IMG/VR virus record: IMGVR_UViG_3300030107_004150
Location: 1 to 24,076 of that record
From: a virus
Strand: one strand, 5' to 3'
DNA length: 24,076 nucleotides
The position numbers were made by a program, and so were the translations under genes. Under the pieces are notes generated by a model, which saw only the letters and a list, made by a program, of their open reading frames with translations, searched no databases and was not told the origin of the DNA. Shown piece after piece: positions 720 to 15,066 of the stretch (position 1 is the first letter of the stretch; every line of letters starts with the position of its first letter).

Positions 720-2063
720 TTATTTTTCTATTGGTTGATTAAGATAACTACTTAATTCTTGGGCTTCTTTCGCCACTTGAGATTGTGGATTTAAAGCATC
801 TTGGTTTATTTCAAAATTATCTAATCTATAGCCATGCTGCCAAACACCACCTTTCTGCAACATTTTTTCATTTGTTATTGGTGTTCTTACGATTTCACCC
901 TTATCATTTTTCTCTAATAATTCATATGTATTTTTAGATTCATTAAGTTCATAATTTGATCCATCTGGACCTACTATTCTAGGTGTTTTGTTTTTTATAT
1001 CATTTAGGAAAATTTCCGCTTGATTTTTTGTTATGTATCCTACACCACCCATAACATTTAACGTATCTCTACCACCTTTACCACCTGGACCTGTACCTGG
1101 AATATAGTTATCTTTACCTCTATTATAAGAATCTTCAGTAACATCTTTATAATATTCAGATACTAAATCAGTTAAAATATCAATATTTTCTTTTTTATAC
1201 ATCCAAGAAGAATCTGTACCTTTTGGTATTTGTTCGTAAAATTTTTTATCTAATAAACCTTCACTCCACATTCTCTCAAATGATAAAGGACCCGCTTTTC
1301 TTCTATTTTCACCTTCACCTATATAATACTCGTTATCACCTGTTAAATCTGTTTTAGCCATTACCATTATGCCTTCAGGTCCAGTTTCTTTAAATTTATT
1401 AATATAAAGATTTTTTATATCGTCACTATAGAAATTACCTCCTTTTTCACCCATTTGTTTAGCGATAAGATTTTGTTCTAAAGTAAAGGTTTCTGCTATA
1501 TTATTTTTAACGTTCCACTTACCAGCAACATCTTTAAATTTATTATAAGCTTGTCCACTTCCAAAACCAATGTCTCCATTAGCTTCTATGGTAAAAGCAC
1601 CTTTATTAGTATACATTTGAGTATAAATTTCATCTCCTTCTAAGTCAACAACTTGACCTTTATCAACCGCGTCCCAATAACCTTTTCTTTCGTTAACTAA
1701 ACCTTGTAATTGTTGATTTAAATTACCAAAAGAAAATTTAATAGCATCCATTTTATCTAAAATATCTGTATCTTTAGTTCTAGCATAAGCATCTGCTAGT
1801 TTTGCATATTCATCTCTTTTGCTTCTTACAAAAGTAGTTACAGCCTCTTTATTATAACCTTGTTCTAGTAAATTTATATTTTGTATACTACCTAGATCTG
1901 CTAAATAAGCTTCTCTAGTAGCTTTTAATTCTTCTTGTTTTTGTATACCAGTTAAAATAGATCCTGTAAGACCTTGTGCAAAAGCCGCGCCTCCAATAGA
2001 AGTTTTTCTAGCTTCTGATCTTGCTAAATCTCCAGCACCTTGTATTAACGATTGATTTGCCAT
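720..2063 (-). CDS. Conserved-type virion protein, 447 aa, possible internal protein
   Basis: This is a complete 447-residue frame with an ATG start. The N-terminus (MANQSLIQGAGDLARSEARK) is followed by a Gly/Ala-rich stretch (residues ~23-40, IGGAAFAQGLTGSILTGIQ) and then about 100 residues of charged, helix-forming sequence. The central and C-terminal parts are Gly, Asn and aromatic rich, with a Gly-rich linker (GTGPGGKGG, near residue 325). There is no signal peptide and no recognised catalytic motif. I recall similar N-termini in structural blocks of uncultured marine phages but cannot assign a function. It lies 1 base after the S74-domain protein gene and 3 bases before the partial left-edge gene, so the three probably form a translationally coupled set. 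A T7 gp14/gp15-like internal core role is plausible from position. Mass spectrometry of virions would settle whether it is structural. Confidence 0.75.
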   Translation of the reverse strand: MANQSLIQGAGDLARSEARKTSIGGAAFAQGLTGSILTGIQKQEELKATREAYLADLGSIQNINLLEQGYNKEAVTTFVRSKRDEYAKLADAYARTKDTDILDKMDAIKFSFGNLNQQLQGLVNERKGYWDAVDKGQVVDLEGDEIYTQMYTNKGAFTIEANGDIGFGSGQAYNKFKDVAGKWNVKNNIAETFTLEQNLIAKQMGEKGGNFYSDDIKNLYINKFKETGPEGIMVMAKTDLTGDNEYYIGEGENRRKAGPLSFERMWSEGLLDKKFYEQIPKGTDSSWMYKKENIDILTDLVSEYYKDVTEDSYNRGKDNYIPGTGPGGKGGRDTLNVMGGVGYITKNQAEIFLNDIKNKTPRIVGPDGSNYELNESKNTYELLEKNDKGEIVRTPITNEKMLQKGGVWQHGYRLDNFEINQDALNPQSQVAKEAQELSSYLNQPIEK

Positions 2064-2064
2064 A

Positions 2065-2280
2065 TTAATTTATTCTTTTAAATTCAACATCTATCATGCT
2101 GTAGTCTACCATGTCATAACCATCGTTACTAACAATAGCGTTTAAAGGTATTTCATCAGACATTACGCCTTGATATATACCATCTCCATATTTTGTATTT
2201 ATATATTCAAAACTATATATATTTAATCCACTAAGTGATTTACCAATTAAGTTTATATTCTTTTTTAGTTTTCTATCAGA
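2065..2280 (-). other. Peptidase S74-like intramolecular chaperone domain
   Basis: This segment encodes residues 274-344 of the coiled-coil protein. It starts at the Ser of SDRKLK, where cleavage is expected between A273 and S274. The catalytic pair by family analogy is S274 and K279. The conserved tail features G-YSFEY and YQGVMSDEIP are present. At about 71 residues it is a short version of the domain, which commonly ranges from about 60 to 150 residues. Assignment is by motif recognition only. Confidence 0.8.
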
Positions 2281-3099
2281 TGCAACAGCCATAGCAGCTG
2301 TTCCAAGTAAACTGCCAATACCACCATATAAAGCAGCATTTGAATCAGCTATAGCTTGATTTCTTTGTGCTAAATCTTGTTGTGCCATACCTAATAAAGT
2401 ACTCGTTTGGTCAATTTGTAAACCTCTAGCTCTTTCAGCACCGGCTAATCTCATCTGCTCTGCTTGTAACGCACCCTCTCTTTCTGCCATTTGTAATCTA
2501 CTAGCTTCACCTCTTTGGAGTTGTTGTACTTGCATAGCTCCTTGAGCTGCTAAAGCTTGGTTTCTAGATTCTTGTTGTCCAATAGAAGCCGCTGCTTGTT
2601 GAGTTTGTAATTGTCCTTGCCTTGCTAACGATTGCGCTAAACCAGCAATACCACTAGCACCAGCAGCACCTCTTAAACCCTGCATTATATTTGCCCTTTG
2701 TTGCGCACCTTGTTGTGCTTCAAATTCTGCTTGTTGTTGATTTACTGTTAAATCTTCATATGGATTTTCCATGCCTTCATATACATTTTGCATACCAGCA
2801 AATTGGTTTTGTACATTAGCAGCTAAGTTACTAGTATCTAAATTTTGATAAGCAGTTAGCATATCATCATATTGTGTTTGAGCAGCAGCTTGAGCATCCC
2901 TTCTTCTACCTCTCCCAACCAAACCTTGTATTATACCCCCAATACCACCAGCAACTTGACCCATACCTTGTGATCCTAAGTTTCCAGCAAAATCAATACC
3001 TTGACCTCCTCCACCTCCAATTGGAGACATTTGGCTTCCACTAAGCAGGTCTAACCCTTCTCCTGACACGGTAAATTGTTTTAATGGTGAATTTTCCAT
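2065..3099 (-). CDS. Gln/Ala-rich coiled-coil internal virion protein with C-terminal S74-type self-cleaving chaperone
   Basis: This 344-residue protein has three parts. Residues ~1-70 are Gly-rich (GGGGGQGIDFAGNLG, then GGIGGIIQGLVGRGRRR). Residues ~70-250 are strongly Gln/Ala rich, with long predicted helices (QQAEFEAQQGAQQRANIMQG and RQGQLQTQQAAASIGQQ), like T7 gp14 or P22 ejection proteins. Residues 274-344 begin SDRKLKKNI and contain YSFEY, YQGVMSDEIP and VDYSMIDVEFKRI. That end matches the intramolecular chaperone / peptidase S74 family (endosialidase-type), in which a Ser-Lys pair five residues apart cleaves just before the Ser; here the pair would be S274 and K279. In that family the released domain helps trimers fold and is then removed. 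The domain is best known from tail fibres, so finding it on an internal-type coiled-coil protein is notable. Alternatively, this is a short fibre or spike protein. The start is ATG 3099-3097, behind an A/T leader. Confidence 0.85.
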   Translation of the reverse strand: MENSPLKQFTVSGEGLDLLSGSQMSPIGGGGGQGIDFAGNLGSQGMGQVAGGIGGIIQGLVGRGRRRDAQAAAQTQYDDMLTAYQNLDTSNLAANVQNQFAGMQNVYEGMENPYEDLTVNQQQAEFEAQQGAQQRANIMQGLRGAAGASGIAGLAQSLARQGQLQTQQAAASIGQQESRNQALAAQGAMQVQQLQRGEASRLQMAEREGALQAEQMRLAGAERARGLQIDQTSTLLGMAQQDLAQRNQAIADSNAALYGGIGSLLGTAAMAVASDRKLKKNINLIGKSLSGLNIYSFEYINTKYGDGIYQGVMSDEIPLNAIVSNDGYDMVDYSMIDVEFKRIN

Positions 3100-6690: not shown

Positions 6691-7254
6691 TTAATAAACA
6701 GTACTAGACCCATCACCTAATTGTGTATATGTAAAAAATACAAGATCTGCCTCGTATGGTGTTAATTGGTTGTTATTATTAGGATCTTGGAATTGTCCAG
6801 AAATTTGAATATCAAGGCGCATCTGTGTTCCACTAGTTGTAAATTGTCCTAATAAAATCCTTCCGTTACTATCAGGAAACTGTAAATCTGTAGTAGTTCC
6901 AGGAGGATAACTAATTATACCTTCTATCAACCCGTTATTGTGCATATTCCACTGATCAAAACTTCCTTCGAAATTAGCAATATTAGTCTCACCTGCGGTA
7001 GACAAAGTTGGAGCTGACAAATACTGAGTATCTCCAATAGTAAGAAAAGTGTCAAATGCAAATGCTGGATCATAATCAATCCAGGTTTGTTGCAACGTGT
7101 GTTGAAAATTAGCGTGCGTGCCAAATAAAGATTGGTTATAAAAAGTACCATTTACCGTGGTTACTGATGTATTTTGGGCTTGAACTGGTTTTGAAAATAT
7201 CCCTGTTATACTGGTCACGGAACCAGTTACAGGTGTCCCTACCGCGGCAGGCTC
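6691..7254 (-). other. C-terminal secreted-type domain of the giant protein
   Basis: Residues ~2605-2791 include FDTFLTIGDTQYLSAP, a FDQW motif and GRILLGQFTTSGTQMRLDIQ. I recall a similar layout, with an FDxxxTIG strand and a later GRVLIGQFTT-like strand, in secreted proteins of Planctomycetes and other marine bacteria, often near dockerins. This resemblance is from memory and its function is unknown. It is the extreme tip of the 2791-aa protein and could be the receptor-facing end or a capping domain. Confidence 0.45.
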
Positions 7255-10200
7255 TACAAATTTTGCGTATGCTCTAAACGTTTGATAATCTGCACTTGGT
7301 AGTATTGATTTTCTTAAACGTATATCATCAAGTATTACACTAGCAGAAGAAGTGTCACTAGTAGTTGATAAACGTAATTTAAATATTGATGAATGTGCTG
7401 TAAATGATTGTCTAAGATCCACAGGTAAACCTTCATTATAGTAATTGTATTGAGTAAGATCAATATCAACATCATCAATATGTACTGTGCCATCTGATGC
7501 TAATTGTTCAATTTGAAGTTTTGCGTCACTATTTGAGTCGTTTACTTCTATTAATTTAAATGCAACTTCATATTCTTTACCAACTTCCATTAAAGCATCA
7601 GTATAAGAATTACCATCGTCTGAAATTGCTCTCACTCTAGGATTAAAACCTTGAGTTTGCAAATTAGGATCATTTGGATCTTGGTATGCTACAGGATGCT
7701 TTATTAATTTAAGACAGTTTGTAATACTATAAGCGCCATCTTGAAAAATTTGAAAATTTTCAATTAACTGAACTGGTTCATCGTAACCGTAAGTACTTGG
7801 AAAATTTATATTAGCTCCCGTATCAATACCCCATCCACTTCCATTTGTACCTAAAGGAATACCATTTTCAAAAGAACTATTTTCAATTAAATTATCACCT
7901 TTATTTTCAACTCTTTCAAGAATTGGATATATATTATAATAGTTGGTAGCAATAGGTACATAAGTACCACTAGTACTAAGCCAATTATTAGACATAATAT
8001 TTAAATCATTTACCCCAACAATACCATCACCATCTATATCCCCGTTAGTATATGGAGTTACAGTTTGACCAAAGTTGTTAATAATCAAGTTTTGATCAGA
8101 TAAATTAACCATCCCATCACCATCCGCATCTCCCGGAAGAAATCCAACATAACTAATACAACTACCATCGTCTGTGTTAGCTGAAGGATCGTAAACACTA
8201 TCATTTACTCCTATATTATATGTACATCCTAATACTACAGGAACACAAGTACCATCATCAACTGTAGCAGTATTATCAAAATTAAAAGCGGTTGCATCTG
8301 TACATCCTGGTACTCCTATTAAGCAAGAACCATCATCATAGTTTACACCGTCACTACAAGGATATGCAGTATTACCAGTTGCGCAATCATAATTACCTGC
8401 GCTTACGTTAGAACAACCAGTAACTAATTGGTCAATTGCAATACTTCCTTCAGCGCTACTACCCATTGGTGATATTCCAAAATTAAAATTACCACTACTG
8501 TAATCACTAGCATCTGGCAATCCAATACCATCCCAACAATTTGTTTTAACTACAATAGCATAAACTACATTATCATCTAAAGGAGTTAGTGTTGTATAAT
8601 GTGTTGTTAAATTTGATACTGAATTCCATTGTGAAAAATCAGAAGGAGTACTACCATCAACTGCTACTTCAACATAATATACAGTGTAGTCTACAATAGA
8701 TGCGGAATCATTAACTGTAGCTGGTGGATCCCAAGATACAGAAACTTGAGCAACTATATCGCCTCCAATCTCAGCAAAAGTATAACTACTTAACACATTG
8801 CTTACGTCTCCGCAGTATAAACATTCGGTATCATCAGTAGAACCACTAGTAAAATTAACAGCATTACCATCATTACAAGAGTACGTATAACAACTACCAT
8901 CATCAGCAGTAGCTGCTGGATCGTAATGAATTGAACTATTATCTGTACATCCCATTGTGTTGTAAGTACAAGGATTATCAGGATCGTCTGTGTTAGCTAA
9001 AGAATCATAATTTAACGCTGTTGAATCTGTACATCCATATATAAATGGAATACAAGAACCATCATCAGTATTAGCATTAGAATCATAGTTAAATTGTGTT
9101 GAATCTATACATCCATAAACTGGATATATACAAGTACCATCATCCGTATTTGCATTAATATCAAAATTAAGTGCTGTTGAATCAATACATCCTGGATAAA
9201 TACAAGAACCATCATCTGTATTAGCTGAAGAATCATAATTAGTAGCTGTATTATCTGTACATCCTAATGTAACTGCGATACAAGGATTATCAGGATCATC
9301 ATACGCTGCTGTTGAATTATAATTAAACGCATTTGGATCTGTACATCCTAAAATAGGATTTGATGAAGGCTCAGCTTGTACGGTACCTAAACCTTGAAAA
9401 GCAGTATCAGCAACATCAAACATCCCAGTAACTTGACCACCACCTGGATCATAACCATATGTTGAATACGCAGCGTTTCTACTTGCTGCCTCAGAAATTA
9501 CACCAGTACCACCAGCCATACCTCTTATGTAGTTAAACCATTTACCTTCTTTTTCTACAAAATCTTGAATTTGTCCTCTTTCTTTATTTGTGTAAATTGT
9601 ATCTATATTCCAACCCGCTTTATAATACAAATTATTATGGTTTGCAGCAGAGTATGTTCCAGTAACAACGTTTGTTCCAGGTAAATAAGTTTCGTAACTT
9701 TTTAGTTCATTAATCCTACCTTGTGAACCCTCGTAGTTTACAGTATGAAATGTTTTTACAATTTCAGGATTATCGTTTAAAATTACATCTACACTACTAG
9801 GATAAAAAACATTATAAAAAGTATTTCTATTAACATCTTTACTATTATGTAACCAAACATGATTATTATAATATGTATAATAATCATTAGAGCAACTTAA
9901 TCCATTTTGCATGTAGGCAAAAGACTTAAAACTAACCCAACCTTTTACATCTTCTTTAAATGAAACTGTAAATTTGGTTGTTCCAAGCCCTTCACTACCA
10001 GACACAAGTTCTGGATGTTGGTGTAATGTAATATTATATTCTTTTTTGTAAGAATCGTAAGATCCTATTAGTTGTTTAGATAACTTTAAATGATCTCTAA
10101 ACCAATCTTTCATACCAAAGTTTGATATTGGTGTTAAACCATCTTTAGATAATCTTAAAACAACACCTCTAACTTTATCTGTAAAATAACACCTGTAAGA

Positions 10201-13200
10201 TTCTGATGCAAAAGATTCTGGATTTTTAGATATACCGTATTCACCGCTATAAGGTATAGCTTGTCCTAACACATTTTCTGTAGCTATTAATTGTGGATTC
10301 CCATCAGCATTATATATTGCGTCTTTATTTGCTAATATTTTTAAAACTCTATCTTCACATAATGCAATTAAATCTCCATCAGCAGTTGATCTAGCATGTA
10401 ATTTTTGAATACTACCATATGAAGGGTTTATTTCTTTTGTAATTTTTTCAGCTTGAATAAACTGATTTAAATCATTTGTTTCACTGTTTTTATTATAAAG
10501 ACCAGAATATATTAAACCATTTAATTTTCTTTCTTGTTTATATTCTCCTTGTAAAGACGCTGAAACTTTAACTCCTTTAGTAATAAATGATTCATTAAAA
10601 GAATCTTTTAAATATGTAGACTCTACACCGTTACCAAAAGAAAAGCAATTATACCAACTAAGAGATATAGCGCAATCTTCACCAATAGTTGTTTTTGTAA
10701 CCCAAATTTCAGTATCAAACGCAAGAAATGTAGCCACATTTGCTTGTTTTAATTTTAAATAAATATTATTACCGTTAGGAGTTATAAATAAAAGCTTATC
10801 TTCATTAGTAATAATTTTTTGAAACTTTGTATTAGCAGTAAAACCCATAGGGCTATTATTTAAAGTCATACAAGAACTAGAATACCCACCTGCTTTATCT
10901 TTGTGCGTAGCAACCGTAACGCCATCTAAAAAACTTGGATCTTTTGGATATATTACTTTTGACCCCTCTGGAATAAATCTTTTTAAAGTTTGAATATTTA
11001 AATCTATAGGTATTTCATCACTAGCTTCATAATATATATCTAGTTTTTCCTCATCAATTTTCTCTGCTTCGAAAACAGCTGGATTTGAAGTTGATAAAGC
11101 ATTATTACCTTCTTCAATTTTTTGTTCTAAAAATTGAATTGCTAGTTTTATGTTAGGTTGTGGAGAGTTTGTAGGATCAAGAGTAGTACCAGCAGGTGTT
11201 GTGCTTGTTAAAGGATTTTTGTCTACTTCTATTATTGCAGTTAATCTACGATTTAAAGGATCTAAAAATTGATCAATTTTATTTTGGTCATAAGCTTGTC
11301 CTTGATCTTTTTTGTATTGTTCATCTAAAGCTTCTTGTCCATTAGCATAATTAAAACGCCATTCTAATTGACAATCTTTAATAGTATATACTTCGTTTGT
11401 GCCAATAAATTTAAATTTTTGACCAATATTTTGTAAATGATCAAGTGTTTTTTGGTTTTCAGATTCTAAATCTAATGTTACATTAGAATCGTATGGCCAA
11501 TTACTATTACCTTCAGCTTTTCTATTGACATTCCAGTGTTCTGGGTGAATATTACCACCTACATAAAAAGCATTCGCCCAAATAGTTGACCAATATGCAT
11601 TTCTAGATTTTGCAGTAAAATTTAATTCTTCAAAACAACCCAATAAAGATATCTCTATGTAATATCTACCTTCTTCATTTACAAAATTATCAGGTGATCC
11701 AATATCATTATAAGCTATATTACCACCACTACCATAAACATACGTTTGAGTATCATATGTATAATAAGGTAATTTTTCTCCTTTAGGTTTAGCGGATTCT
11801 GCTAATGCATCTACACTTACATGTTGCGTATCACTTATAAATACACCTAAACCATATCTTTTACTATATGGAGCTATTGGTGGGTAATTTCCCCAAGTAT
11901 TATCGGGTGTGCTTTCTATTCTAATACTATTATTTGACCAAACTTTCTCTTTTATTTGTCTATAATATTGTAATCTATCAATAAACCAATACGTAGGTAC
12001 TGTTTCTCCATTTGGTGTAGAAGATCCAAAACCTGAACTCCCAGTTGGTGAAAAAACTTTTTTCCAATCTTCATATGTATCTAATTCTGTTGTAGTTGCT
12101 GAAAAACCCGAGATCAAGTTTCCGTTAATATCATAATTTATATTACCACCTCCAGCAGCAATACTACCAAGAGCTGGATTACCACCGAGGTGTTCAGAAA
12201 TACTATGAACATCAAACTCATGTATTTTTGTTTCTACAACGCTACTATTGAAAATTGTAGGTGCTATTTCTTTTCTTAAATCTTCTTTTGCTTCTATTTT
12301 TACAAAAAACTTACCTTGAAACTGAGGTCTTGGTAATCTTATTTTTTCAAAAAACTCTACTACAACATTACTATTTACACTAGTTGGACTGTCTGTAATC
12401 CAATCATCTTGATCTCTTATAGGTTCGTCTAATGTTACGTGATAGTTTTGTGATCCAGTGTTATCTAACGCAATTCTTCCGCAGTTATAGTATTTAGATT
12501 CTTGAACACCACCCACGTGAGAAGAATTAAGATCTATTATCGTAGTAAATTTAACAGCTAAATCTACTAAACCTTCAGCATCTAAATGTGTACCACCACC
12601 ATAACCTGTTAAATTTGAATATCGTTTTTTCCAATCAGATTTTGATATTTTAAAACCAGTAGCCCCAATTTGAGGCACATGATCTCCATATTGAAATAAA
12701 GTATGTAATACGGTTCCAGAATCATCAGAGTGTATTGCTTTTTGTTTTCCAAGTGTTCTCCATGTTGTTCCAATAAACTCAGGAACTTCGTTTTTAATAG
12801 ATATTGCTTTTGTGTTCATTTTTACTTCCACAGCATTATCACTATCAATACCTTTTTTTAATTCTAAAAAATCTCCTTCTTGTATTTTATTACGTTCACT
12901 AGAAGGAACAGCTATCCAAAAATCACCATTTTCAGCTTTATAAAAAGCATCAACGACAATATTATAAGATGGTAGTGAAGAATCTTTTACGTAATACTTA
13001 TAACTTTTTGCCCAACTAGGAATTACACAATTATTTTCAATTAAAAAAGCTAAACTATTTTGAGATTCAACTTTTGAAATTTCAACACTACTATCAGCAT
13101 TAGTAAAAATTGGACTTTCTCTTCCGTTATCGTCTACTAAAACAATTCCTAATTGATAATTTCTTTTAGACTTAATTGAGGGAAGCCCAGATAAAGGCTC

Positions 13201-15066
13201 TAAACTATAGTTTTCTACTATATCTGCTAAAGATCTATTAGCGTGAGAGACATTTAATTGAAAGTTTTTAGTATCAAAATCGTAAGAAGATAAATAATTT
13301 CCGTATACAATTCTATTACCAATTACTTCCTGAGATTTAGCAGCTAATGGAACAGCATCCCAAGGTCTTAGCATTTGATTTTCTGGAAGTACTCCTTTTA
13401 TATTTTTAGGATTAAAATCATATTCTCCATCAAAAGCGCTTTCAAACCATGGTACTTGTATTGGAAAATCATTTCTTTTTATAGTATCTATAATATATAT
13501 TAAAGGAGATCCTTCAAATTTAACTAATAAATCAACGCTTTCTACTGCTAAAGTATTATCTAAATCTATAAAATCTTTAAGTTTAACATTTGTAATAACA
13601 TTTGACATACCAATGTTATAAGCAGTATCTTTAGTGTAATGAAATTTAGATGCTTCAAAAATTAAATCAGTAAATGGAGCAAATGCAGATACTTCTTTGT
13701 CAAGATATCTATATCTATAACTAAACCTAAGCATTTCGTTTTCAAACTTTTCAAAAGATCTTTCATCTAAAACAACTGAGAAAAAAGATGGACTTTTTGG
13801 AGTTAAAGTTGAAATTGATATTATTTTATATTGTATTATAGCTGTATTAGTAGCGTTAAAGCTAATATCTTCAATAACTAGTTTAACATCAAATTCATAT
13901 GGTAAAGTTCTACTGTTATCTTCTATTGACTGCGTGTTTAAAAGTAACAAAACATCTCCTATTTCGTAATTTAATTTGCTTCCAACAAACGAAGAAATTT
14001 CTATTTCCCCTTGAAAACCAGCTGAAAATTGATTATAAGATGTATTAAAATTATATTCAGTTGTTCCTTTTGTTAAACCATCACGTTTGTTTCTAGAGTA
14101 TTTAACTGTAAGTTTTTTTGTAGGTTTTCTTTTTATAACATTTATATCTTTAGATATTACGTTACGTAAAGGGGATGAAGATAAAGTATGATTAATTAAT
14201 TTTGTTGGAGTTACTCCAGTCTGATCACTACCTTCTACACTTCTATCTATATTTATAACTTTAGGTTCATTTATATTATCTGTCCAAAACAACAAATCAT
14301 TAACAATGTTAACGCTTGTAATTAGATTATTAGAATTAAACTGTAAACAACTACCTGTAAACTCTAATATATAAGGACTAGAATCACTAGGAATAAACCA
14401 CATTAAAGGTGGTAAATTATCTAAAATTATATAGTTTTCTGGGCTAGATGGTCCTACTGATTTTACATATATTACTTTAGAATTTAATACAACATGGTTT
14501 CCTCCATACCAAATACCTGTTAGAGTGTCTCCTATTGATATGTTATTAATATTTTCATAAGGAATTCTTATTTTATCAGCAGCACCACCTTCAATTGGAC
14601 GAACTCCTCCAAAATCTGAACCTGTAACAGAGTATATATAAAACTTTTTTCTATCTGTAAACACAACCATCTGCATATACGTTTTGGTTGTTTCGTCAAA
14701 AACTCTTTTAATTATATAATCTCTAACAACAAAATCTTCATAATTAAAATCAGATACTGGTAAATCATGTATTACATCTAAAAAATTTTTAGTTCTACCA
14801 GATAAAAACCAATAAGATGCATTTTGTCTTTCGTCAGAAAAAGAACCAACACAATCATACAACTGATCTTCCTCACCCCATGTCTCAACTATTGGTAATT
14901 CAATTGCTTTATTACCTAATAAATTTTCAATAGCACCAACGTTAGACTCATCTGATGTAGATATTTGTATATTCATAGCATCTACATATTGTCCTTTTGG
15001 AACAAGTCTTTCGTCAAGATCTTTATTCATCTTACCAGCAGTAAACTGGTTTTTAATCTCTGGCAT
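6691..15066 (-). CDS. Giant 2791-aa tail nozzle-like protein with a C-terminal chain of host-like adhesive modules
   Basis: The N-terminus reads NQFTAGKMNKDLDERLVPKG, followed by DAMNIQI and GAIENLLGN. This resembles the opening of the stabilisation or nozzle proteins of short-tailed phages (T7 gp12 and P22 gp10 type, beta-propeller). Residues ~1-1890 remain beta-rich without low complexity. A block at ~1550-1660 (ALCEDRVLKILANKD, FTDKVRGVVLRLSKDG) looks propeller-like. From residue 1907 the protein changes character. It has seven Cys/Asp repeats to ~2084, an FN3-like domain ~2085-2200, three more repeats 2217-2303, a dockerin-like segment ~2311-2362, a CBM4/9-like jelly roll ~2390-2590 and a final secreted-type domain ~2605-2791. 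This extension is far beyond the ~800 residues of T7 gp12. The order (after the 470-aa gene, before small tail genes) supports a tail-tip position, where the extension could contact the cell surface or marine polysaccharide. The nozzle role is inference. The frame is continuous, with no sign of decay. Confidence 0.85.
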   Translation of the reverse strand: MPEIKNQFTAGKMNKDLDERLVPKGQYVDAMNIQISTSDESNVGAIENLLGNKAIELPIVETWGEEDQLYDCVGSFSDERQNASYWFLSGRTKNFLDVIHDLPVSDFNYEDFVVRDYIIKRVFDETTKTYMQMVVFTDRKKFYIYSVTGSDFGGVRPIEGGAADKIRIPYENINNISIGDTLTGIWYGGNHVVLNSKVIYVKSVGPSSPENYIILDNLPPLMWFIPSDSSPYILEFTGSCLQFNSNNLITSVNIVNDLLFWTDNINEPKVINIDRSVEGSDQTGVTPTKLINHTLSSSPLRNVISKDINVIKRKPTKKLTVKYSRNKRDGLTKGTTEYNFNTSYNQFSAGFQGEIEISSFVGSKLNYEIGDVLLLLNTQSIEDNSRTLPYEFDVKLVIEDISFNATNTAIIQYKIISISTLTPKSPSFFSVVLDERSFEKFENEMLRFSYRYRYLDKEVSAFAPFTDLIFEASKFHYTKDTAYNIGMSNVITNVKLKDFIDLDNTLAVESVDLLVKFEGSPLIYIIDTIKRNDFPIQVPWFESAFDGEYDFNPKNIKGVLPENQMLRPWDAVPLAAKSQEVIGNRIVYGNYLSSYDFDTKNFQLNVSHANRSLADIVENYSLEPLSGLPSIKSKRNYQLGIVLVDDNGRESPIFTNADSSVEISKVESQNSLAFLIENNCVIPSWAKSYKYYVKDSSLPSYNIVVDAFYKAENGDFWIAVPSSERNKIQEGDFLELKKGIDSDNAVEVKMNTKAISIKNEVPEFIGTTWRTLGKQKAIHSDDSGTVLHTLFQYGDHVPQIGATGFKISKSDWKKRYSNLTGYGGGTHLDAEGLVDLAVKFTTIIDLNSSHVGGVQESKYYNCGRIALDNTGSQNYHVTLDEPIRDQDDWITDSPTSVNSNVVVEFFEKIRLPRPQFQGKFFVKIEAKEDLRKEIAPTIFNSSVVETKIHEFDVHSISEHLGGNPALGSIAAGGGNINYDINGNLISGFSATTTELDTYEDWKKVFSPTGSSGFGSSTPNGETVPTYWFIDRLQYYRQIKEKVWSNNSIRIESTPDNTWGNYPPIAPYSKRYGLGVFISDTQHVSVDALAESAKPKGEKLPYYTYDTQTYVYGSGGNIAYNDIGSPDNFVNEEGRYYIEISLLGCFEELNFTAKSRNAYWSTIWANAFYVGGNIHPEHWNVNRKAEGNSNWPYDSNVTLDLESENQKTLDHLQNIGQKFKFIGTNEVYTIKDCQLEWRFNYANGQEALDEQYKKDQGQAYDQNKIDQFLDPLNRRLTAIIEVDKNPLTSTTPAGTTLDPTNSPQPNIKLAIQFLEQKIEEGNNALSTSNPAVFEAEKIDEEKLDIYYEASDEIPIDLNIQTLKRFIPEGSKVIYPKDPSFLDGVTVATHKDKAGGYSSSCMTLNNSPMGFTANTKFQKIITNEDKLLFITPNGNNIYLKLKQANVATFLAFDTEIWVTKTTIGEDCAISLSWYNCFSFGNGVESTYLKDSFNESFITKGVKVSASLQGEYKQERKLNGLIYSGLYNKNSETNDLNQFIQAEKITKEINPSYGSIQKLHARSTADGDLIALCEDRVLKILANKDAIYNADGNPQLIATENVLGQAIPYSGEYGISKNPESFASESYRCYFTDKVRGVVLRLSKDGLTPISNFGMKDWFRDHLKLSKQLIGSYDSYKKEYNITLHQHPELVSGSEGLGTTKFTVSFKEDVKGWVSFKSFAYMQNGLSCSNDYYTYYNNHVWLHNSKDVNRNTFYNVFYPSSVDVILNDNPEIVKTFHTVNYEGSQGRINELKSYETYLPGTNVVTGTYSAANHNNLYYKAGWNIDTIYTNKERGQIQDFVEKEGKWFNYIRGMAGGTGVISEAASRNAAYSTYGYDPGGGQVTGMFDVADTAFQGLGTVQAEPSSNPILGCTDPNAFNYNSTAAYDDPDNPCIAVTLGCTDNTATNYDSSANTDDGSCIYPGCIDSTALNFDINANTDDGTCIYPVYGCIDSTQFNYDSNANTDDGSCIPFIYGCTDSTALNYDSLANTDDPDNPCTYNTMGCTDNSSIHYDPAATADDGSCYTYSCNDGNAVNFTSGSTDDTECLYCGDVSNVLSSYTFAEIGGDIVAQVSVSWDPPATVNDSASIVDYTVYYVEVAVDGSTPSDFSQWNSVSNLTTHYTTLTPLDDNVVYAIVVKTNCWDGIGLPDASDYSSGNFNFGISPMGSSAEGSIAIDQLVTGCSNVSAGNYDCATGNTAYPCSDGVNYDDGSCLIGVPGCTDATAFNFDNTATVDDGTCVPVVLGCTYNIGVNDSVYDPSANTDDGSCISYVGFLPGDADGDGMVNLSDQNLIINNFGQTVTPYTNGDIDGDGIVGVNDLNIMSNNWLSTSGTYVPIATNYYNIYPILERVENKGDNLIENSSFENGIPLGTNGSGWGIDTGANINFPSTYGYDEPVQLIENFQIFQDGAYSITNCLKLIKHPVAYQDPNDPNLQTQGFNPRVRAISDDGNSYTDALMEVGKEYEVAFKLIEVNDSNSDAKLQIEQLASDGTVHIDDVDIDLTQYNYYNEGLPVDLRQSFTAHSSIFKLRLSTTSDTSSASVILDDIRLRKSILPSADYQTFRAYAKFVEPAAVGTPVTGSVTSITGIFSKPVQAQNTSVTTVNGTFYNQSLFGTHANFQHTLQQTWIDYDPAFAFDTFLTIGDTQYLSAPTLSTAGETNIANFEGSFDQWNMHNNGLIEGIISYPPGTTTDLQFPDSNGRILLGQFTTSGTQMRLDIQISGQFQDPNNNNQLTPYEADLVFFTYTQLGDGSSTVY
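7300..7905 (-). other. CBM4/9-like carbohydrate-binding jelly-roll domain
   Basis: Residues ~2388-2590 start with NLIENSSFENG, then a GW pair (NGSGWGID). Later come an EVAFKLIEV strand, FKLRLSTTSD and the closing strand ASVILDDIRLRK. This start (N-x-ENSSFE) and end (hydrophobic-DD-(I/V)-x-(L/V)) are typical of CBM4/9 and related galactose-binding-like folds. It may bind algal or capsular polysaccharide. The ligand cannot be read from sequence. Confidence 0.7.
7981..8136 (-). other. Dockerin type I-like pair of EF-hand calcium loops
   Basis: Residues ~2311-2362 hold two duplicated segments, GDADGDGMVNLSDQNLIINN and GDIDGDGIVGVNDLNIMSNN. Each has the DxDxDGxxxxxD calcium loop followed by a helix, the hallmark of dockerin type I. 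The spacing between the two loops (30 residues) also fits. In cellular proteins, dockerins bind cohesins or end extracellular proteins. Here the domain is internal to a phage tail protein. Identification by motif is strong, but the binding partner is unknown. Confidence 0.85.
8158..8418 (-). repeat. Three further Cys/Asp repeats after the FN3-like domain
   Basis: Residues 2217-2303 hold three units, starting GCSNVSAGNYD, GCTDATAFNFD and GCTYNIGVNDS, each ending in DDGSC or DDGTC. The first and third are longer than the seven units upstream (about 36 and 29 residues) because of inserted loops (for example around TAYPCSDGVN). They belong to the same family as the upstream array, and the FN3-like domain separates the two groups. 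Confidence 0.8.
8467..8814 (-). other. Fibronectin type III-like domain inside the repeat array
   Basis: Residues ~2085-2200 contain the pattern VSVSWDPPA, then IVDYTVYYVEV, then LTPLDDNVVYAIVVKTNC. These are the Trp of strand B, the Tyr-containing strand C and the Leu-x-Pro turn with Tyr in strand F of FN3 domains. The domain splits the Cys/Asp repeat array into seven units before it and three after it. FN3 domains in phage tails usually aid weak carbohydrate or surface contact. Confidence 0.7.
8815..9348 (-). repeat. Seven tandem Cys/Asp-rich repeats in the giant protein
   Basis: Residues 1907 to ~2084 hold seven imperfect units of about 22-28 residues. Each starts GC(T/I)D, continues xxAxNYD and ends with (T)DDGSC or DDPDNPC. 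The last unit is degenerate (SCNDGNAVNF). Each unit carries two Cys, one at the start and one at the end, and an Asp-rich turn suited to calcium. At DNA level, units share strings such as plus-strand ctgtacatcc and ccatcatc. I know this repeat type from secreted proteins of marine Bacteroidota, where its function is undefined. Confidence 0.85.
9998..10014 (-). repeat. Palindrome encoding the peptide HPELVSGS, possible relic of a mobile palindromic repeat
   Basis: The 17-base palindrome CCAGA-(7-base loop)-TCTGG lies within the giant gene and encodes most of HPELVSGS (residues 1684-1691). From memory, this peptide recurs in unrelated bacterial proteins through dispersed palindromic repeats of the form ATCCTGAACTTGTTTCAGGAT. 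Here the arms differ at paired positions yet still pair. It falls in an apparent loop between two beta strands. Confidence 0.35.

What the first reader, a model, noticed from the sequence alone, without database searches (positions are those of the whole stretch)
2065..2280. Self-cleaving S74 chaperone attached to an internal-type coiled-coil protein
S74 domains are known mainly on tail fibres and spikes, where they help trimers fold and then cut themselves off. Here the domain follows a Gln/Ala-rich helical protein in the internal protein block. It may time the assembly of an ejected channel or core: folding first, cleavage releasing an active form.
Basis: partly seen in the sequence, partly recalled or inferred. 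Interest (0 to 1): 0.65.

Follow-up and report, generated by a model that had tools for sequence, protein, structure and literature searches.

The report
Self-cutting tag on phage ejection protein
A marine virus of bacteria carries, on the end of a protein from its DNA-injection set, a small domain that in other proteins cuts itself off; some relatives lack it and some carry an unrelated self-cutting (intein-type) domain in the same place, which suggests these phages trim this injection protein themselves.

Summary
ORF 3099-2065 (-, 344 aa) ends in a short S74 domain beginning at S274 with the catalytic spacing S274...K279. The gene lies in the ejection-protein block, not among fibres.

Relatives extend it. 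In a scan that used neither catalytic residue, S, D and K were invariant in 73/73 distinct proteins, 70 of them on Gln/Ala-rich bodies. The body family exists with and without S74 (8/73 with it in a body-only scan); the tree needs at least 16 gains or losses. Close S74-less relatives end within about 16 residues of the cleavage site. Seven relatives carry a Hint (intein-type) domain there, with invariant Cys; one Hint/S74 pair has 77%-identical bodies. In one locus S74 lies at a fusion of ejection proteins 1 and 2. S74 also sits on true P22 gp7 homologues.

Best reading: self-cleavage at A273|S274 matures a gp14/gp7-type ejection protein. Cleavage is inferred, not shown: the short domain lacks the C-terminal helix bundle that MYRF's S74/ICA domain needs. 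'Timed channel assembly' is only partly supported; the S74/Hint exchange points to C-terminal removal, rather than trimer folding, as the shared function. No description was found in the open library searched.

The parts
2065..3099 (-). Gene for the S74-tagged ejection-type protein (344 aa)
   Evidence: ORF list; relatives with conserved body and gene order
2065..2280 (-). Short S74 domain, residues 274-344 plus stop; predicted nucleophile S274 (2278-2280), K279 (2263-2265)
   Evidence: PF13884 weak hit, family hits, S/D/K 73 of 73 in a scan not using them, pLDDT about 95, 3GUD/6F45 profile match
2281..2340 (-). Gly/Ala-rich hydrophobic end of the body just before the predicted cut (residues 254-273, NAALYGGIGSLLGTAAMAVA)
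   Evidence: Sequence; mean Kyte-Doolittle 1.24 here, but family median only 0.39; the S74-less relative L001 ends 3 residues past this point
2332..2895 (-). Conserved body (residues 69-256; NPYEDLTVNQQQAEFE...RGAAGASGIAGLAQ...SIGQQE), mostly predicted helix
   Evidence: HMM family of 173 proteins with and without S74; AlphaFold helix 152-260
720..2063 (-). Next gene, 447 aa, predicted second ejection protein
   Evidence: 52% identical to the gene after the S74 gene in L039; its homologue also follows the S74-less gene in L001
3..716 (-). Start of a large third protein of the block (cut by the window end)
   Evidence: Open ORF; in L039 the gene in this place is at least 1248 aa

Best explanation
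The gene encodes the small, first protein of the ejection (internal virion) set, in the slot of T7 gp14 / P22 gp7, made as a precursor with a C-terminal S74 module. After synthesis the S74 part folds and trimerises, and S274 with K279 cuts the A273|S274 bond, leaving a 273-residue mature protein like the one that close S74-less relatives encode directly. Transient capping of the C-terminus probably keeps a poorly soluble, Gly/Ala-rich protein assembly-competent until it enters the head. Shown here: domain, dyad, position in the block, module boundary, repeated gain and loss, replacement by Hint. Inferred: cleavage, its timing, location inside the virion, and the solubility role.
For: S, D and K invariant in 73 of 73 distinct proteins found with patterns that exclude them; the i,i+5 Ser-Lys spacing is the one proven by mutation in MYRF (PMC3742440). 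Gene order small(S74)-medium-large in nearly all loci, and some downstream genes match families named 'released from the phage upon host infection'. S74 fused to a P22_gp7 domain above Pfam's cut-off in L114 and L096; named ejection proteins with S74 in isolates H6/1 and GAP52, and the gene before an injection translocase in AH02. Seven S74-less sisters whose bodies are 61-86% identical to S74-bearing ones stop between 16 residues before and 14 after the Ser, without S74 remnants downstream in those checked. Hint domains with invariant Cys in the same slot in 7 contigs, one with a body 77% identical to an S74 relative. In L253 S74 lies at the junction of a fusion of protein 1 with protein 2 (47.5% identity to the separate gene of L028, E 5e-118). 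In 38 of 39 records with S74 on such a protein there is only one S74, so fibres there do not carry it too.
Against: No cleavage data. The domain is about 71 residues and matches only residues 1-69 of 129 in 3GUD: the C-terminal helices, whose leucine zipper is needed for cleavage in MYRF (PMC6972908), are absent. The window body alone has no PHROG match and no profile similarity to the P22_gp7-type bodies. The hydrophobic end is not a family rule (18% of members above 0.8). More distant S74-less relatives run 30-40 residues past the site.
Confidence: 0.62

Rival explanations
1. The S74 domain is kept uncut and serves as a permanent trimerisation or docking domain of the internal protein; the dyad is conserved for structural reasons.
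For: The short form lacks the helix bundle needed for cleavage in MYRF. Conserved Asp and Ile positions beside the dyad show that structure is also under constraint.
Against: Lys at i+5 is invariant on otherwise variable bodies; Hint replaces S74 in near-identical bodies and is not a trimer fold; S74 lies at a protein fusion junction.
Confidence: 0.2
2. S74 and Hint are passengers spread by recombination, with no need for cleavage; the ejection protein simply tolerates C-terminal additions.
For: S74 is gained and lost often (16 to 28 changes) and most relatives do without it.
Against: Strict conservation of catalytic residues in both modules; both modules are of kinds that cut at their own first residue.
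Confidence: 0.12
3. It is a tail fibre or appendage with its usual S74 chaperone, not an internal protein.
For: Very similar S74 domains occur on fibre-like, low Gln/Ala proteins (L017-L023), and fibres are where S74 is best known.
Against: Body is helical and Gln/Ala-rich; the gene lies at the head of the ejection block in dozens of genomes; S74 also sits on P22_gp7 homologues; in L045 and L073 a fibre-like S74 protein and an S74-less body protein coexist as separate genes.
Confidence: 0.06

Closest known systems
S74 / ICA autoprocessing domains (endosialidase, phi29 neck appendage gp12, MYRF)
   Same: Ser-Lys dyad at i,i+5; the G-V-[MI]-[SA]-[DQ] region that corresponds to the trimer motif GVIAQ; position at the C-terminal end of the mature chain
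   Different: About 71 residues, without the C-terminal helix bundle; follows helices and a flexible linker rather than a triple beta-helix
First ejection protein of podoviruses (T7 gp14, P22 gp7)
   Same: Small protein, first of three ordered ejection genes; S74 is directly fused to P22_gp7 in L114 and L096
   Different: The listed known ones (181-240 aa, PMC8954989) are not described with S74; the window body shows no detectable P22_gp7 similarity
Hint/intein-type self-cutting domains (Hint_2, bacterial intein-like)
   Same: Fills the same C-terminal slot in seven relatives, with an invariant Cys at its start
   Different: Unrelated fold and Cys chemistry; not present in the window

Membership tests
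Peptidase S74 / intramolecular chaperone (PF13884) | Sequence and fold of the S74 core | tested here: met
   Window itself below Pfam's cut-off (16.4 of 22), but 36 of 47 family members match, weak 3GUD/6F45 profile matches and BFVD matches to ICA proteins
Peptidase S74 / intramolecular chaperone (PF13884) | Ser-Lys catalytic dyad, spacing i,i+5 | tested here: met
   S274/K279; 73 of 73 in a scan not using them
Peptidase S74 / intramolecular chaperone (PF13884) | C-terminal helix bundle used for trimer and cleavage in full-length members | tested here: not met
   Chain ends right after the core; alignment covers 3GUD 1-69 of 129; model has no C-terminal helix. The claim is therefore limited to a short-form S74
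Peptidase S74 / intramolecular chaperone (PF13884) | Actual self-cleavage | not testable with these tools
   Needs protein expression or virion mass spectrometry
Podoviral first ejection protein (gp14/gp7 type) | First of a small-medium-large ejection gene block | tested here: met
   Window order; same order in most S74 loci
Podoviral first ejection protein (gp14/gp7 type) | Sequence similarity to P22_gp7 | tested here: inconclusive
   Not found for the window body; found for other S74-bearing proteins. Works like one by position; not shown to be a member
Podoviral first ejection protein (gp14/gp7 type) | Present inside the virion and ejected | not testable with these tools
   Needs proteomics or cryo-EM

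The most novel reading that the evidence does not exclude
A large group of marine podoviruses matures its first DNA-ejection protein by C-terminal self-cleavage, using interchangeable unrelated modules (S74 with Ser-Lys, or Hint with Cys) that cut just before their own first residue; in some lineages the module also splits a fusion of two ejection proteins.
Probability: 0.5. Interest if true: 0.78.

Novelty: new variant of a known kind. Interest (0 to 1): 0.6.

Why it matters
Ejection proteins must stay soluble and compact in the head, yet form membrane channels minutes later; how they are held back is open. A removable self-cutting tag would be a simple, directly testable control step (two point mutants and one mass-spectrometry run). 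It would also move S74 from a fibre-folding device to a general self-removing tag, and the S74/Hint exchange is a natural experiment that separates cleavage from trimer chaperoning.

Tried and rejected
Single-sequence PDB search: no hit. Foldseek and VIA-align of the S74 model against PDB gave only weak unrelated rows: uninformative, not evidence against S74. The window's PHROG hit (phrog_6121) depends on S74: the body alone has none, so it was not used to name the body. hhalign of the body family against P22_gp7-type bodies: no similarity. Coiled-coil periodicity: not significant. A membrane-peptide role for the residues before the cut: not a family rule. Flavobacterium elemo phage: a 202-aa 'structural protein' sits in the same slot but without BLAST similarity. 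Search for S74 remnants after S74-less genes: none. Literature: no paper in the held open library joined S74 or Hint with ejection, injection or internal virion proteins; the 2022 ejection-protein review has no occurrence of 'S74' or 'proteoly', nor has the PhiGT1 podovirus paper any of 'S74', 'chaperone' or 'cleav'.

Full report
Observation. The window is a 24,076-base virus fragment from IMG/VR. On the minus strand it carries a portal gene (relatives in Maribacter, Flavobacterium and Cellulophaga phages), then capsid and tail genes (named here from order and PHROG hits only), then a 344-aa protein (3099-2065), a 447-aa protein (2063-720) and the start of a large one (716-3). The last 71 residues of the 344-aa protein begin S274-D-R-K-L-K279. 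Pfam's S74 model hits them below its cut-off, but relatives pass it clearly, the family profile finds solved S74 domains weakly but with the catalytic residues aligned, and the predicted structure matches viral 'intramolecular chaperone auto-processing' proteins.

What the body is. AlphaFold gives a mostly helical protein with one helix at 152-260, a low-confidence linker at 257-271, then a confidently folded S74 domain. Gene order around S74 genes of this kind is strikingly uniform: medium tail gene, often a gene of about 135 aa, the S74 gene of about 300 aa, one of about 500 aa, one of about 1,100 aa. This is the small-medium-large order described for gp14, gp15 and gp16 (PMC8954989). A few downstream genes match families named 'released from the phage upon host infection'. 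Elsewhere the same kind of S74 is fused directly to a P22_gp7 domain (L114, L096), and annotators have called the S74 protein of isolates an ejection protein. The window's own body family has no detectable similarity to P22_gp7, so I call it gp14/gp7-like by position and composition, not by descent.

Is the dyad kept? A scan built only from the part of the domain downstream of the dyad gave 73 distinct proteins: Ser, Asp and Lys are invariant. All but three have Gln/Ala-rich bodies. Thus in this subfamily S74 is mainly a tag of ejection-type proteins.

Presence and absence. A body-only scan found 8 of 73 complete family members with S74. On a tree of 173 bodies the label needs 28 changes, at least 16 forced by well supported branches (a FastTree with long branches, so the number is approximate). 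Close pairs show the boundary: L002 and L219 (without) are about 85% identical and L219 stops 4 residues short of the Ser; L001 stops 3 residues past it. No S74 remnant follows in the DNA, and L001 keeps the same next gene. More distant S74-less members have tails of up to about 40 residues.

Replacement by Hint. L204 and six further contigs carry, in the same slot of the same body, a domain starting C-[IVML]-P-[KQ]-G with an invariant C-D-M-H motif. It matches Pfam Hint_2 in five of seven (best E 2.9e-5, below Pfam's cut-off) and aligns weakly with the bacterial intein-like domain 2LWY and with PI-SceI. L283 (Hint) and L155 (S74) have bodies 77% identical over 482 residues. S74 and Hint are unrelated; what they share is cutting the bond before their own first residue (established knowledge for inteins; shown by mutation for MYRF, PMC3742440). 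This is the main reason to prefer self-cleavage over trimer chaperoning as the common function.

Fusions. In L253 one 847-aa protein holds body, S74 at 292-362, and then a region 47.5% identical over 442 residues to the separate next gene of its sister L028. In MW202675 S74 is followed by a region with a lytic transglycosylase domain in one 1,185-aa protein. If S74 cuts, these fusions are separated; each is a single contig, so a stop codon lost by sequencing error cannot be excluded for L253.

Mechanism. Most likely the precursor folds with S74 as a transient C-terminal cap, S274/K279 cut at A273|S274, and the 273-residue product enters the ejection core. T7 gp14 is insoluble on its own and is held by gp15 in the virion (PMC8954989), so a removable cap on its counterpart is plausible. 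Steps shown: domain, dyad, slot, boundary, turnover, Hint exchange. Steps inferred: cutting, timing, solubility, location. The strongest objection is that the short S74 lacks the helix bundle whose leucine zipper is needed for cutting in MYRF (PMC6972908); fibre-like proteins in this survey carry the same short form.

Novelty. S74 on ejection proteins is visible in scattered annotations, but I found no paper in the held open library that discusses it, nor the Hint exchange; subscription papers were not searchable. I rate it a new variant of a known kind.

Noticed in passing
L204:2357-3589; L279-L285: Hint (intein-type) domain in place of S74 on the same ejection-type body in seven contigs, with invariant first Cys and C-D-M-H motif.
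   Followed up: yes
L253:2405-4948; L036:5173-8730; L015:225-1313: S74 in the middle of longer proteins: a fusion with the next ejection protein (L253), with a lytic transglycosylase region (L036), and with a 67-aa tail (L015).
   Followed up: partly
window 2746-2808 (residues 98-118), strongly expanded in L283 and L284: Seven-residue repeats of the form N-x-[YF]-[AE]-[GD]-[ML]-[EQ] near the start of the conserved body; a few copies in the window, many more in some relatives.
   Followed up: no
L034:4184-4321, L035:4914-5318, L036:4679-5173, L037:33628-34038: A small gene annotated as acetyltransferase lies in or beside the ejection block of several phages; the window has no clear counterpart.
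   Followed up: no
window 6691-15066 (-): 2,791-aa tail-region protein containing multiple 'GC.D..A.NYD..AN.DDGSC' repeats and a dockerin-like 'GDADGDG.VN..D' pair, which looks unusual for a phage tail protein.
   Followed up: no
L045, L073: Records in which S74 sits on a fibre-like protein while the ejection-type body in the same record lacks it; records rarely hold more than one S74.
   Followed up: partly
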